Positions 40,987 to 46,178 of a DNA stretch of 61,272 bases are shown here, in pieces. The position numbers were made by a program, and so were the translations under genes. The notes beneath the pieces were generated by a model that was given only the letters and a program-made list of their open reading frames with translations, had not been told where the DNA came from and ran no database searches. The stretch's first letter is position 1. Every line of letters starts with the position of its first letter. The stretch is from Clostridia bacterium (GTDB lineage Bacteria > Bacillota > Clostridia > Oscillospirales > CAG-272), in assembly GCA_017451915.1 (NCBI GenBank), contig JAFTNJ010000022.1, positions 1 through 61,272 on the forward strand, read 5' to 3'.

Positions 40987-41775
40987 TTATAATACCTTGC
41001 TCAAAAATTCCTTGGTACGGGGGTTTTGGGGATTGCCAAAAAGCTCGGCGGGGGGCGCAGATTCCGCAATTACGCCGCCGTCCATAAACAGAATGCGGTC
41101 GGATACCTCCCGGGCAAAGCCCATCTCATGGGTCACAATCACCATGGTCATGCCCTCATCGGCCAGCTCCTTGATCAGATCCAGCACCTCACCTACCATC
41201 TCGGGGTCCAGCGCCGAGGTGGGCTCGTCAAACAACAGCACCTGGGGGTTCATAGCCAGGGCGCGCACAATGGCAATTCTCTGCTTCTGTCCGCCCGAAA
41301 GGGTAGAGGGGTAGGCGTTTGCCTTGTCCTCAAGTCCAATGCGGCGCAACAGCTGCATGGCCTCTTTCTTGGCCTCCTCCCGAATGGCCGCCTTGGTGGC
41401 ACGGGACGCAAAGAGTCCCCCCGCATCCTTGATGCGCAAATGTACGGGGGCTAACATGATGTTCTCCAGCACCGTTTTGTTGTGAAAGAGATTGAACTGC
41501 TGAAAGACCATACCCATGTGACGGCGGTGCTTGTTGATGTCTACCTTTCGGTCGGCAATGTCCTCGCCGCCAAAGAAGATCGAGCCACCGTCGGCGTCCT
41601 CCAGGCAATTCAGGCAACGCAAAAAGGTGCTCTTTCCGCTGCCCGAGGGGCCAATGATAGAGACCTTCTCACCCTTGTGAATGGTTTCGTCAATGCCGTT
41701 GAGCACCACCAGGTTGCCAAACCGCTTGACCAGGCCCTTGACTTCGATGAGGGGCGTTTTATTTTCTGCGTTCAT
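40987..41775 (-). CDS. Polar amino-acid ABC transporter ATP-binding protein
   Basis: This 262-residue ATPase energises amino-acid import (GlnQ/HisP type). Walker A is GPSGSGKS near residues 41-48, the signature LSGGQKQR is near 159-166 and Walker [12 protein letters not shown] near 179-189. An insertion with [20 protein letters not shown] near 110-130 is somewhat longer than usual. It overlaps the permease gene by 17 bases. It is the last gene of the operon binding protein-permease-ATPase. Confidence 0.95.
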
Positions 41776-42580
41776 TTTTTGCCAATCTCCTTTCCATCAG
41801 CTTCACCAATCCGGCAATCACGGCAACGATCACAATGTAGAGCAGAGCCATGACCAGATAGGGGATCATATACTCGTAGGAGTTGCTTCCCTGGTCTTGG
41901 AAGGCCTTGGTAATATCCATGGCACCCACGTAACCAACAATGGCGGTCTCCTTGATCAGGGCAATGAACTCATTGCCCAGGGTGGGCAGGATGTTCTTAA
42001 TGGCCTGGGGAACCACGATCTTGAGCATGGAAACCGGGAAGGAAAGTCCCACGGCGCGGGCGGCCTCCAGCTGTCCCGCATCCACCGAGTTGATACCGCC
42101 GCGCATGATCTCGGAGATATACGCGCCGCTGTTCAAGCCGAAGATGAGCATACAGGAGGTGACGGGGGGAAGGGAAAGACCGATCAGGGGAAGCAGGATG
42201 TAATATCCCACCAAAAGCTGAACCACAATGGGGGTTCCGCGGAAGAAGGCCACGTACACGTTGCACACCTTTTGTGCGTAGCGGGTGACCTTTTTGTAGG
42301 GGGGGATCACCTTGATGATGGCGATCACCGTACCGATCACAATACCGATCAAAAGACCCAGCACCGAGATCAGAGCGGTATTCTTCATACCCGTCAAAAG
42401 ATCCTTATAGCCCCGATTGGTTACAAAGTAATTGTAGAAGATACCCCACTTTTTTGCAAAATTAAAGCGGGTATAAACGCTTACGGCCAGCAGGATCACC
42501 AGGGCAATGACGGCAAGAATTGCCAACACGTCCATCCAGTGGTTTTTCCAGAAGCCTTGTTTTTTGGATGCTTGTTCCAT
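41759..42580 (-). CDS. Polar amino-acid ABC transporter permease
   Basis: This 273-residue membrane protein matches HisM/GlnP-type permeases. An N-terminal segment is at residues about 18-37. The core five helices run from about 65 to 265, and the EAA loop [25 protein letters not shown] near 172-196 docks the ATPase. It should work with the ATPase that overlaps it downstream and the binding protein upstream. A hairpin between the binding-protein gene and this one could lower its expression relative to the binding protein. Confidence 0.95.
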
Positions 42581-42611
42581 TCTATCGTCCTTTCAGAAAG
42601 TAGAAAACGCA

Positions 42612-42643
42612 AAACCAGGGAGAGTAGCTCTCCCTGTGTTTGC
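42612..42643 (-). promoter_or_regulatory. Hairpin between binding-protein and permease genes
   Basis: On the minus strand CAGGGAGAG pairs with CTCTCCCTG around a three-base loop and is followed by a T-containing run. Such hairpins commonly stabilise the upstream binding-protein message or partly terminate. Confidence 0.6.
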
Positions 42644-42657
42644 ATATTGGTTGATGA

Positions 42658-43557
42658 TTAAGCGTTGGCGTCGTTGATCTTTGCTACGATGGCCTTTGCG
42701 GGACCCTCGTCGATCACCACGTACTTCACGTTGCCGTTGATGATGTTCTGAACGGCCAGCGCGCCGGTGTTATAGCTGGTGGTGGTAAAGCCAAAGCCGT
42801 CAAATTCCCACTCGGCGTCGCCCTTGCAGTACTTCTGACCGGTGGTGCCGCTCTGAACGCCAACGGCTACGTCGGAGCCCAGGGTCTTGAGAATGGCCTC
42901 CACGTCAGCGGCAGTCTTGCAGGAGTCAAAGGTGGTATCGTCGGCAGCAACGATCAGCATCTGGGATGCGTTGTAATAGGAATCGGTGAAGTCCAGGATC
43001 TGCTTACGAACGTCGTTCACGGTCAAGCCGGCAGCGGCAACGTCGCAGGTACCGCCGGCAACGGTAACTTCCTTACCGCTTTCGTCGGTGTAGGTACCGC
43101 CGGCAGCGGAAACGGCCAGGCAAACGGCGTCAAACTCCATGTTGTTGATGTAGAGCTCCTTGCCAAGATACTCGGCAAACAGAGCCATGATCTCCATATC
43201 TACGCCGTAGTAGTTCTCGCCAACCTTGTATTCAAAGGGCTCAAACGCGGCGTTGGTGGCAACGATCAGCTGGCTGCCGTCGGTCTTCATTTCCTTAGCG
43301 GAGGTCACCGCGGTGGGGGTGCCGTCACCAAAGTACTTGTTGATGATCTCGTCGAACTTACCGTTGTCCTTGATCTCCTTCATAAAGGTGTTGAGCTGAT
43401 TGAGCAGCTCGGTGTTGCCCTTCTCAACGGCAAAGGCGTACTCTTCCTCGGTCAGAGCAATGTCGATGACCTTTACCTTGCCGGTCTGGCTGCCGCAGGA
43501 AGCGAAGCATGCAACCAACAAAATAGCTGCGAGAAACAGGCTTGCAATCTTTTTCAT
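42658..43557 (-). CDS. Amino-acid ABC substrate-binding lipoprotein, apparently circularly permuted
   Basis: This 299-residue protein has a signal peptide with lipobox FASC near residues 17-20 and should be anchored outside. Its family is the bacterial extracellular solute-binding family 3. The usual order is altered. The segment normally at the C-terminus (VKVIDIALTEEEYAFAVEKG then DEIINKYFG, here about 25-78) comes first. The usual N-terminal ligand segment LIVATNAAFEPFEY comes next near 96-109. The protein ends at NVKYVVIDEGPAKAIV, which normally leads into the LTEEEY segment. The regions between stay in standard order. RBS GGAGG sets the start at 43557. Confidence 0.85.
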   Translation of the reverse strand: MKKIASLFLAAILLVACFASCGSQTGKVKVIDIALTEEEYAFAVEKGNTELLNQLNTFMKEIKDNGKFDEIINKYFGDGTPTAVTSAKEMKTDGSQLIVATNAAFEPFEYKVGENYYGVDMEIMALFAEYLGKELYINNMEFDAVCLAVSAAGGTYTDESGKEVTVAGGTCDVAAAGLTVNDVRKQILDFTDSYYNASQMLIVAADDTTFDSCKTAADVEAILKTLGSDVAVGVQSGTTGQKYCKGDAEWEFDGFGFTTTSYNTGALAVQNIINGNVKYVVIDEGPAKAIVAKINDANA

Positions 43558-43590
43558 AACTAAATCCTCCAAAGTTTTTATGATGCTGCT

Positions 43591-43619
43591 ATTATAACGC
43601 ATAAATATTCATTTGTCAA
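43591..43619 (-). promoter_or_regulatory. Consensus promoter of the amino-acid ABC operon
   Basis: On the minus strand TTGACA (43619-43614) and TATAAT (43596-43591) with a 17-base spacer. Confidence 0.9.
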
Positions 43620-43806
43620 GGGCTTTTTTGAATATTTTTGCATTTTTACGAAATATTGCATTTTGCTGCCGCCTAATAGATATATTTTGGACATTCTGAC
43701 GGCCTCCTCGTTTTTCTACATTATAATAGGGAATCCGCTCCGCCTCCTATATGATATGAAAATGAATAAAAAGGAGCAAAGGATGAATAAATGAATAAAA
43801 ATACAA

Positions 43807-43834
43807 AATGCCGGCAACCTTGATTGCCGGCATT
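43807..43834 (-). terminator. Terminator-like hairpin after the DUF1015 gene
   Basis: Arms AATGCCGGCAA and TTGCCGGCATT; on the minus strand the following bases are TTTTGTAT. It lies just past the DUF1015 stop. Confidence 0.75.
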
Positions 43835-43838
43835 GGGG

Positions 43839-45101
43839 TTATTTGATCTTTCTGCACTCCAGGTAATAGCGCTTGTCGGGGGCGTGGCCCATGGAGAAGG
43901 TTTTGCGGGGAAGGGCGCCGTCGTAGATCACGGTGCGGAACAGCTCATCCTTTCGCATCCCGTCAAAGAGGAAGCCCACGGTGTTGCCGTCGGTGATCAG
44001 GGAGCGCAGGGAGTCCTCGCCGTGGATGTAGTCCACCTCCACCTCGGGGTGGCTTTGGAGGTAATCGTCCAGGAATCGCTGGAGGGTTCCCACCGTCAGC
44101 TGTTGCGTGGGATGGGGAACCGTTACGTCGCCCTCCTCCACCGCGGTGATGTAGCGAAAGGTCTGGGCGGGGGCGGTGCCGTGAAGCTCCGAAAGGGAGG
44201 TCTTCAGGGACGTCAGCAGATCGGCGGGATCGCAGTGGAAGACCACGCGGTAGATCGGCTCAAACTGAAGAGCTGCGTCGTGAAGATTGACCACCTCTAC
44301 CAGAGCATAGCGGGCGGGGTGGGTTTTGGCGGGCTCCTCACCAATGGCGGCCTTGACCTCCTCGTAGGCGGCCTTGGCCGAGGCCAGGGAATGGTTTCCG
44401 TCGCCTACGGCAAAGAGAAGGGGGGCCAGGGCGGGATCGCCGTAGCACTCCTGCAGAGCCGAGGGGGTGATCAGGGATGCCAGTCCCTCCTTTACGTTGG
44501 CCTGCTGGCGGGGATTGAGGGCATAGGCGCGTACGTGTCCGCCGCCCAGCATCAGGTCAAAATCGTAGAGGGGCTCCTCGCCCTGACAGTCGGTGAGGGT
44601 GGGCTCGATGACCGTGTGATGAGGATCGTCGATGAGGAGCATGACATGGGGAAGCTCCAGGGGCGCGTTGCGCCGAACCGCCACCCGTGGGGGAATGCGC
44701 TCCAGCACGGTGCCCTCGGTGGCGCGAATCAGAGAGTCCGAGCCCTTGCGGTAATCGTACTGCTCCAGGTCCACCGCGCCGATGAGGCCAAGGCGGACGC
44801 AACCGTCGGATTGGGTGCGCTCCAGGGCGATCATGGCACCGGGATGGGATACCAAAAGGGTATCCAGAAGCGTTTGCATACTTTGGTTGATGCGGGGGAT
44901 CCGCTTCTCGGTCTCACTCAGATAGACCTCGGGCAGGATCATGGAGAGGGTCGAGGGGGCATCGCCAACCGTGGCGGCAACGGCCTCCCAGTAGGCGGGC
45001 TCGCTGGTGTATTGATCGCAGGCGACCACCGACCAACGGGTGCCGTCGATCTGATTAAAATTGGGCAGCAGGATCTCTGCGCTGTCAAATCCAATATTCA
45101 T
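43839..45101 (-). CDS. DUF1015 family protein
   Basis: This 420-residue protein matches DUF1015, a soluble family of unknown function widespread in anaerobes. Conserved stretches include WSVVACDQYTSEPAYW near residues 23-38, the central LLIDDPHHTVIEP near 150-162, and FAVGDGNHSLASAKAAYE near 232-249. The last stretch has a GDGNH motif that suggests a binding or catalytic site. AAGG precedes the start. It is 45 bases downstream of the PHP-domain gene on the same strand and is probably co-transcribed. Confidence 0.88.
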   Translation of the reverse strand: MNIGFDSAEILLPNFNQIDGTRWSVVACDQYTSEPAYWEAVAATVGDAPSTLSMILPEVYLSETEKRIPRINQSMQTLLDTLLVSHPGAMIALERTQSDGCVRLGLIGAVDLEQYDYRKGSDSLIRATEGTVLERIPPRVAVRRNAPLELPHVMLLIDDPHHTVIEPTLTDCQGEEPLYDFDLMLGGGHVRAYALNPRQQANVKEGLASLITPSALQECYGDPALAPLLFAVGDGNHSLASAKAAYEEVKAAIGEEPAKTHPARYALVEVVNLHDAALQFEPIYRVVFHCDPADLLTSLKTSLSELHGTAPAQTFRYITAVEEGDVTVPHPTQQLTVGTLQRFLDDYLQSHPEVEVDYIHGEDSLRSLITDGNTVGFLFDGMRKDELFRTVIYDGALPRKTFSMGHAPDKRYYLECRKIK

Positions 45102-45146
45102 AGGGGAAGATACCTTTCCTTGGAATGGTTCATTATTTTTTGGGAC

Positions 45147-46178
45147 TTATGCCAGGGGAGGCAGTTCGTCCAGGAAGTACGCCCGGGTGTTGGCGTGATA
45201 ACCGCGGGGATCGGTGACCGTGAGGCGGATGTAGATGGCATCGGCAGGAAGCACAAAGGAGGCCTCCTCCAGCAGCTCCCCGTTTTGGCTGTAGGCCGCG
45301 TAGGCGCGACGCTTGCCCGTGGTCAGGCAGATCTTTTGTGCGCCTGAGCAGGTGATGTGAAGCACGCCGTCCTCGATCCACAGATCGTGGATCTTGGGTC
45401 CCTCGGAGGCGTAGAAGTCTCCGTTCTGCAGAGCCTTGGTGACGGTGCGGTACTCCAGGCGGTCGGCCTTGATCATAACGAACCCGCCAAAGGAATCCCA
45501 GCGTCCCGAGGTTTCGGGATGTCGGTTGTGGTTATCGTCAGCGGAAACGCAATAAATGCGTTCTCCTGCGCGGAGCATATCGTCGTAGACTCGCTCGTTG
45601 TACTCGGGATAGCCCTCGGAAAAGGCGGAGAAGTTGCTGATCTCCATGGCGTCCATGCCGTGGTAGGCGGTGTAATCCCCAAAGTCCTCCAGGGACCAGG
45701 TGGGATGATTGTAGGTGACAAAGAAGCCGTTCTCCTTGCCCAGGGCGATCATTTCATTGATGCATTCGGGGGTGTAGGAGCGCACGTAGTCGGGCTTGCT
45801 CTCATCGTATTTCAGCTGGTCGCGGTAACTGGGGGCGTTCCCAAAAAGATATTTTTCCCGATGGTAAAAGGGCATGGTCAGCTGATCGGGCTCCAGAGCG
45901 ATATAGCAGAGGTGGCAGGTCTTGCGCACCTGGAGACCGCTTTCCTTGGGAACCATCACCTCGGCCTCAAAGCCGTTGAGGGGAAGAAACTGTTCGTCGG
46001 CCAGCTCGGGGTGGGCGATCAGTACGTCGTGATCGGTAAAGGCGACCACCGAGTAGCCGTGGGCGAGATACATCTCCTTGACCTCGGCCGGGGTTTTTGC
46101 GCCGTCCGACACGGTGGTGTGACAGTGGAGATTGGCTTTGTAATATTGACCGTTTTCGGGCAACAGATGGATTTTCAT
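45147..46178 (-). CDS. PHP-domain metal-dependent hydrolase-like protein
   Basis: This 343-residue protein has PHP-domain metal motifs: NLHCHTTVSDG near residues 16-26, YSVVAFTDHDVL near 42-53, TYNHPTW near 153-159 and SADDNH near 204-209. Members hydrolyse phosphoesters such as histidinol phosphate; the substrate here is unknown. The C-terminal 100 residues look beta-rich. The start at 46178 has GGGAG upstream. It begins a two-gene transcript with DUF1015 and diverges from the HAD gene. Confidence 0.88.
   Translation of the reverse strand: MKIHLLPENGQYYKANLHCHTTVSDGAKTPAEVKEMYLAHGYSVVAFTDHDVLIAHPELADEQFLPLNGFEAEVMVPKESGLQVRKTCHLCYIALEPDQLTMPFYHREKYLFGNAPSYRDQLKYDESKPDYVRSYTPECINEMIALGKENGFFVTYNHPTWSLEDFGDYTAYHGMDAMEISNFSAFSEGYPEYNERVYDDMLRAGERIYCVSADDNHNRHPETSGRWDSFGGFVMIKADRLEYRTVTKALQNGDFYASEGPKIHDLWIEDGVLHITCSGAQKICLTTGKRRAYAAYSQNGELLEEASFVLPADAIYIRLTVTDPRGYHANTRAYFLDELPPLA

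What the first reader, a model, noticed from the sequence alone, without database searches (positions are those of the whole stretch)
42658..43557. Amino-acid binding lipoprotein with circularly permuted domain order
The sequence shows the family-3 C-terminal segment (LTEEEYAFAVEKG to INKYFG) directly after the lipobox, followed by the canonical N-terminal segment LIVATNAAFEPFEY. The protein stops at YVVIDEGPAKAIV, which in ordinary members continues into that LTEEEY segment. Bases after the stop hold a hairpin and no leftover C-terminal coding, so this is not a simple duplication. It looks functional: it has a strong promoter, RBS and lipobox and an intact permease and ATPase behind it. I do not know of a described natural permutation in this family, but I cannot exclude one.
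Basis: partly seen in the sequence, partly recalled or inferred. Interest (0 to 1): 0.75.

Follow-up and report, generated by a model that had tools for sequence, protein, structure and literature searches.

The report
Circularly permuted amino-acid binding lipoprotein
A bacterium related to gut Clostridia makes an amino-acid-capturing surface protein whose chain starts where its normal relatives end, and many related bacteria carry the same or another rotation of this protein, so evolution seems to have cut and rejoined it in new places more than once without breaking it.

Summary
Window 42658-43557 (-) encodes a 299-aa lipoprotein of the SBP_bac_3 family. Its canonical C-terminal segment (residues 28-79) comes first, then a linker, then the canonical N-terminal and middle segments. 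Each segment occurs once and nothing is left over. All three have the same nearest canonical relative, L062 (C 65%, N 50%, M 61% identity), as a true circular permutation predicts. AlphaFold2 gives a confident model (pLDDT 92.2); GlnBP matches it in chain order only over residues 4-172. At least 25 of 118 related genomes, own included, carry a complete copy in this order and at least 10 of 118 a second rotation. On de-rotated sequences, AU tests reject a single clade for either order. In an even draw from the class, 7 of 75 family-3 loci in 30 other genomes look permuted (hand count). The cut points that I mapped fall in the small lobe, so the lipid anchor moves from large to small lobe. A circularly permuted sugar-binding lipoprotein is published (Tp0684); ten text searches found no family-3 case. 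Ligand and docking are untested.

The parts
42658..43557 (-). Circularly permuted family-3 amino-acid-binding lipoprotein gene (299 aa + stop)
43591..43619 (-). Sigma-70-like promoter TTGACA-17-TATAAT (12 of 12)
   Evidence: consensus match only
43566..43570 (-). Ribosome-binding site GGAGG
   Evidence: read from sequence
43495..43557 (-). Signal peptide with lipobox ...FASC, Cys21 the expected lipidation site
   Evidence: Cys21 invariant in 32 of 32 aligned C-N-M proteins; lipobox rule recalled
43321..43476 (-). Segment C (residues 28-79), canonical C-terminal segment moved to the front; maps to GlnBP about 173-223
43273..43320 (-). Linker (residues 80-95) that joins the old C-terminus to the old N-terminus
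42877..43272 (-). Segment N (residues 96-227), canonical N-terminal segment
42664..42876 (-). Segment M (residues 228-298), canonical middle segment, now at the C-terminus
42616..42636 (-). Intergenic hairpin with T-containing tail between binding protein and permease
41759..42580 (-). Amino-acid ABC permease (HEQRo_perm_3TM, 76.6 bits, cut-off 42.2)
40987..41775 (-). ABC ATPase of the amino-acid type (GlnQ-like; 298.9 bits, equivalog cut-off 379 not reached)

Best explanation
This is a working, lipid-anchored binding protein of a polar amino-acid ABC importer. Its two-lobed Venus-flytrap fold is circularly permuted. The old C-terminus is joined to the old N-terminus by a linker of about 16 residues. 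New termini were opened in the small lobe, between the helix after VVIDEGPAKAIV and the strand VKVIDIA. Shown here: the order of the segments, one copy of each, a confidently predicted fold, conserved hinge and ligand residues, an operon with permease and ATPase, many relatives of the same order, purifying selection, and permuted orders that do not form single clades. Inferred: it captures an L-amino acid between the lobes and hands it to the permease; the permutation came from an in-frame tandem duplication followed by loss of the outer parts; and its main structural effect is that the membrane anchor leaves from the small instead of the large lobe.
Against: No binding or transport data exist. 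The ligand cannot be named: GlnBP's side-chain residues Asp10 and Lys115 (the latter recalled) are replaced by N102 and Q235, and Gly119 by T239 (my mapping), and no specific NCBIfam equivalog passes its cut-off. The second rotation could not be modelled well (pLDDT 69.1). Ten of the 50 rows shown start at model residue 48-50, that is, they also place part of the front segment in chain order; what they pair it with was not examined.
Confidence: 0.88

Rival explanations
1. Standard topology with an extra N-terminal repeat of the C-terminal segment (partial duplication).
For: Tandem family-3 binding domains exist and give C-N contiguity, as in GlnPQ 6h30 and in multi-domain ORFs of relatives.
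Against: The protein ends at AKINDANA. No C match lies after M in any frame, and none of the 32 aligned proteins has a second C segment after M.
Confidence: 0.01
2. Sequencing, assembly or binning artefact, or a decaying pseudogene.
For: The window genome is a draft of 79 contigs, 87.09% complete.
Against: The order recurs in at least 25 of 118 relatives, own included, and in 34 of 56 named loci. One of these 34, L048, is cut at a contig end; L067 is a further fragment; several loci appear in both sets. Single-contig genomes G304, G333 and G458 also carry it. dN is below dS.
Confidence: 0.01
3. Chimera: the front segment was captured from another binding-protein gene rather than moved from the same one.
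For: Paralogues are common in these genomes, so exchange is possible; separate trees of the segments were not made.
Against: Among 56 canonical sequences all three segments have the same top hit, L062, and the seven best hits of all three include L070.
Confidence: 0.06
4. One ancient permutation followed by reversions, instead of repeated independent permutations.
For: Canonical rows L062, L063, L064, L066 and L070 lie inside the window-type clade, and the tree has no firm root. Label changes cannot tell gain from loss.
Against: AU tests reject one clade for all C-N-M (p 1.1e-5), all M-C-N (2.7e-5) and groups b with c (2.6e-5), a with b (0.00105) and a alone (0.00118). Groups b and c each pair with a different canonical sister, L192 and L189, on starred branches. 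Subgroups a, b and c were named after the first tree, which weakens their p-values.
Confidence: 0.25

Closest known systems
SBP_bac_3 / PF00497 amino-acid-binding proteins (GlnH, ArtJ, AncQR; type II, cluster F as recalled)
   Same: Sequence family, predicted fold, main ligand and hinge residues, operon with HEQRo-type permease and GlnQ-like ATPase.
   Different: Segment order is C-N-M instead of N-M-C; termini and lipid anchor map to the small lobe.
Tp0684 (MglB-2) of Treponema pallidum, 'Type Ic / Cluster Bc' (PMC4990184; passages read)
   Same: A natural circular permutation in a lipid-anchored ABC binding protein, with relatives in Gram-positive and gut bacteria; binding retained in that case.
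   Different: A type I sugar-binding fold, not family 3. The paper proposes one permuted subclass; here there are two rotations that do not form single clades. The terms 'type II' and 'cluster F' do not occur in its text.
GlnPQ tandem substrate-binding domains (PDB 6h30)
   Same: Head-to-tail family-3 domains give the same C-linker-N junction.
   Different: There the junction joins two canonical domains; here it lies inside one re-cut domain.
Circularly permuted PDZ domains (CIRPIN preprint PMC12667903; passages read)
   Same: A domain that exists in nature in several rotations.
   Different: Unrelated fold. The words transporter, periplasmic and solute do not occur in that text.

Membership tests
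SBP_bac_3 (PF00497) amino-acid-binding proteins | Pfam score over the gathering cut-off | tested here: met
   86.7 bits against 26.4, in 3 stretches
SBP_bac_3 (PF00497) amino-acid-binding proteins | Collinear N-to-C order of the domain | tested here: not met
   Profile pieces come as 85-131, 1-54, 53-96; it is a circularly permuted variant of the family, not a standard member
SBP_bac_3 (PF00497) amino-acid-binding proteins | Two-lobed fold of the family | tested here: met
SBP_bac_3 (PF00497) amino-acid-binding proteins | Residues that hold the amino acid's alpha group and the small-lobe aspartate (GlnBP Gly68, Thr70, Arg75, Asp157) | tested here: met
   G177, T179, R184, D283 invariant in 32 of 32; residue roles from PMC7400645
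SBP_bac_3 (PF00497) amino-acid-binding proteins | Binding of an amino acid | not testable with these tools
   needs ITC or DSF
GlnH equivalog (NF007029) | Score over the equivalog cut-off | tested here: not met
   93.8 bits against 303; glutamine specificity not claimed
Type Ic / Cluster Bc (Tp0684-like) | Type I sugar-binding family with permuted N lobe | tested here: not met
   SBP_bac_3 is the only Pfam family found; the best PDB matches by sequence and fold are amino-acid-binding proteins and their cyclohexadienyl dehydratase kin
Polar amino-acid ABC importer operon | Permease with HEQRo_perm_3TM and ABC_tran ATPase next to the binding protein | tested here: met
   76.6 against 42.2 bits; ABC_tran 124.5 against 25 bits

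The most novel reading that the evidence does not exclude
Family-3 binding proteins of Clostridia are a natural circular-permutation series. At least two rotations arose repeatedly, always by opening the small lobe and closing the large one, because this moves the membrane tether or the permease fusion point from the large to the small lobe. That would change how the flytrap docks on its permease, and would be convergent adaptation by permutation rather than drift.
Probability: 0.35. Interest if true: 0.78.

Novelty: new variant of a known kind. Interest (0 to 1): 0.62.

Why it matters
Circular permutation of binding proteins is widely engineered for sensors (recalled), while the searches here turned up one published natural case in binding proteins, Tp0684. 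A common family with three natural orders, close canonical sisters (for example L192 beside group b, L189 beside group c, L070 beside C-N-M rows) and clear cut points lets one test how permutations arise, what they cost in folding and what they change in transport. Profile tools that assume collinearity split these proteins (Pfam gives three stretches here), so annotation of amino-acid uptake in Clostridia may be affected.

Tried and rejected
Rejected: extra N-terminal repeat, artefact or pseudogene, chimera from different paralogues (not by separate trees), one clade for each order (reversion is not excluded).

Led nowhere or partly: the AlphaFold2 model of the second rotation (Lachnospira L071, 20-row mixed alignment A2) was poor, pLDDT 69.1 with low confidence over the M region, and was not searched. 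A phylum-wide protein search found 2 of 398 genomes at E<=1e-25, the window's own and one of its class, so the close window-type form looks largely confined to that class. Three relatives titled Bacilli or Erysipelotrichaceae (L058, L059, L061) do occur among named MAGs. The paper searches returned nothing. One search gave one paper, whose listing shows one use of each term. Searches listed no paper whose title or abstract start is on a permuted family-3 protein (listings only; one search listed 12 of 23). One search gave the Treponema paper, another the CIRPIN preprint. Subscription journals are mostly not in that library, so absence from print is not shown.

Counting notes: the 77 and 68 locus counts were made by hand from the printed rows over the cut-off (85 and 72 rows), merging pieces of one ORF. 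Only doubtful or known permuted loci were read further: 15 regions (L212 and L215 gave no ORF above my threshold) and 5 (L221 and L223 gave none). Loci matched end to end by the profile were taken as canonical without reading. Row drops: L138, L076 and L048 were left out of the tree; the tree used 72 of 176 unique rows, chosen by me. Weakly recognised rows are L138 (C 9 bits), L149 and L150 (M 16 and 23 bits) and L137. The match lists were cut or only partly fetched, so genome counts from them are lower bounds.

Full report
Observation. The ORF at 42658-43557 (-) gives a 299-aa protein. Residues 1-20 are a signal peptide and Cys21 is the lipobox cysteine. phmmer against PDB chains aligns residues 96-216 with GlnBP 4-107 and residues 25-78 with GlnBP 170-223. 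The Pfam profile appears in the order 85-131, 1-54, 53-96. I call the three segments C (28-79), N (96-227) and M (228-298); canonical proteins are N-M-C and this one is C-N-M. In a six-frame scan of window 41000-45200 each segment profile has one positive match, so nothing was duplicated or left behind.

Source of the segments. Against 56 canonical (N-M-C) sequences, C, N and M of the window protein all have the same best hit, L062 (65%, 50% and 61% identity). L062 reads VVIDEMPAKQIVETSN, a short loop, then KKVKVISVPLTEEEYAFAV, through the point where the window protein has its stop and its start. That is what a circular permutation predicts and a chimera does not. Separate trees of the segments were not made.

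Function. The permease passes HEQRo_perm_3TM (76.6 against 42.2 bits) and the ATPase passes ABC_tran (124.5 against 25). GlnBP's ligand residues Gly68, Thr70, Arg75 and Asp157, its hinge (85-89, 181-185) and its domain limits (large 5-84 and 186-224, small 90-180) are taken from PMC7400645 (passages read). By the alignment and my motif mapping they become G177, T179, R184 and D283, invariant in 32 of 32; Y40 and Y194 of the hinge are also invariant in 32 of 32. Against a plain glutamine binder, Asp10, Lys115 (recalled as a contact) and Gly119 are N102, Q235 and T239 here (each 32 of 32), so glutamine should not be assumed. dN is below dS in C, N and M for six pairs, one M value being undefined.

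Distribution. In 118 genomes (own included), 97 match at E<=0.001. By segment analysis at least 25 of the 118 hold a complete window-type C-N-M protein (L001-L023, L025, L026) and one a truncated copy (L024). At least 10 of the 118 hold a second rotation, M-C-N (L027-L030, L135, L136, L139-L142). Of 56 named loci, 34 hold a C-N-M ORF (L048 cut at a contig end), one is a C-N fragment (L067) and 3 are M-C-N in Lachnospiraceae (L071-L073, two of them named Lachnospira isolates); the rest are canonical, multi-domain or incompletely recognised. In the class draw 84 of 391 genomes match at E<=1e-20, in any order. Over everything fetched by then, 195 ORFs passed my threshold: 97 C-N-M, 31 M-C-N, 56 canonical and 11 incomplete or multi-domain; 176 of the 184 fully ordered ones are unique (89, 31, 56). 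These sets are biased toward permuted forms by the query. A less biased count comes from PF00497 itself: in 31 genomes of the class (own included) I count 77 loci over the cut-off. Reading 15 regions gives 8 permuted loci in 5 genomes, three of them with only two of the three segments recognised (L208, L210, L211). Without the window's genome this is 7 of 75 loci in 4 of 30 genomes, three of the seven in one genome (G134) and two in another (G146). In 31 genomes drawn from the phylum it is 1 of 66 loci in the 30 other genomes (L219, M-C-N, 17 bits for M).

Neighbours. Among loci with at least 700 nt downstream, a permease like the window's is next to or fused with the binding protein in 90 of 95 C-N-M, 29 of 31 M-C-N and 52 of 55 canonical cases; loci found by two searches count twice, and four of the five C-N-M exceptions have such a permease elsewhere on the same strand of the locus. 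With at least 2500 nt the ATPase is found within my distance limit in 28 of 29 C-N-M loci, 0 of 3 M-C-N and 5 of 8 canonical. For the three M-C-N loci of that set an ATPase-like ORF does exist elsewhere in the locus.

Number of origins. On de-rotated sequences the quick tree of 173 rows needs 14 changes of order and the careful tree of 72 rows needs 8, with at least 5 for C-N-M and 2 for M-C-N forced by starred branches. AU tests reject one clade for all C-N-M (p 1.1e-5), all M-C-N (2.7e-5) and C-N-M groups b+c (2.6e-5), for a (0.00118) and a+b (0.00105). Groups a (window type), b (L112, L113, L132, L133) and c (L118, L124, L125) were named after the first tree. Canonical rows lie within the window-type clade, so reversions are possible and the counts do not show direction; many forks are open.

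Cut points. Window-type proteins open at about GlnBP 169/170, before the strand VKVID. Most M-C-N proteins open before a motif like SIxSxxDLxG, and the L027-L030 type opens just before IGVQxGTTG. By my mapping these are about GlnBP 100 and 110. All three lie in the small domain, while canonical termini (5 and 224) lie in the large domain. So each of these forms closes the large domain and moves the anchor, or the permease fusion point (L071-L073, L120, L130 for M-C-N; L025, L057 for C-N-M), to the small domain. That this is adaptive is a hypothesis.

Route. Permutation through tandem duplication is the usual route (established knowledge, recalled). Supporting it here, multi-domain ORFs of relatives repeat these domains in M-C-N phase after one signal peptide (L202 MCNMCN, 748 aa; L199, 1224 aa, and L201, 750 aa, with some M pieces below threshold). 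L076 has a canonical-phase tandem instead (NMCNMC, weak M). In a genome of the window's genus an M-C-N gene is followed by a lipoprotein-permease fusion that keeps M and, by eye, the tail of N (L030). No direct intermediate was found.

Known work. The Treponema glucose-binding lipoprotein Tp0684 is circularly permuted and was proposed as Type Ic/Cluster Bc, with a suggestion that permutation may suit tethering (PMC4990184, passages). It is a different fold class. Ten text searches (nine on permutation, on GlnBP residues) found no family-3 case in an open-access library; that does not prove it is unpublished. I rate it a new variant of a known kind.

Noticed in passing
L030:1180-3325 (genome G014, same genus): An M-C-N binding-protein gene is followed by a lipoprotein fused to the permease that keeps segment M and, by eye, the tail of segment N, like a decayed second binding domain.
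   Followed up: partly
L199:617-4288, L202:1058-3301, L201:1374-3623, L204:2-3040: Very long ORFs (748-1224 aa) with two or more family-3 domains repeated, read as M-C-N phase behind one signal peptide, ending in permease-like sequence by eye.
   Followed up: partly
L071, L072, L073 (Lachnospira pectinoschiza, L. multipara, Lachnospiraceae MAG): M-C-N binding domain fused directly to the permease behind an N-terminal membrane helix without a lipobox found by my pattern.
   Followed up: partly
window 43054-43104 (-), residues about 152-168: Insertion of about 17 residues (GGTYTDESGKEVTVAG) in segment N, present in the closer relatives and absent from more distant C-N-M proteins.
   Followed up: no
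G000:C16:2944-3597 (L195): The only other SBP_bac_3 locus found in the window's genome is in canonical order and diverged.
   Followed up: no
window 42616-42636 (-): Hairpin with a weak T tail between binding protein and permease, possibly lowering permease expression relative to the binding protein.
   Followed up: no
L219:876-1829 (genome G511, listed as same phylum only): A diverged M-C-N protein outside the window's class, opened just before the IGV strand.
   Followed up: partly
L083:3608-5932 (Pseudomonadales MAG): A 775-aa ORF with segments in the order C-N-N, so C-N contiguity also occurs outside Bacillota; not worked out.
   Followed up: no
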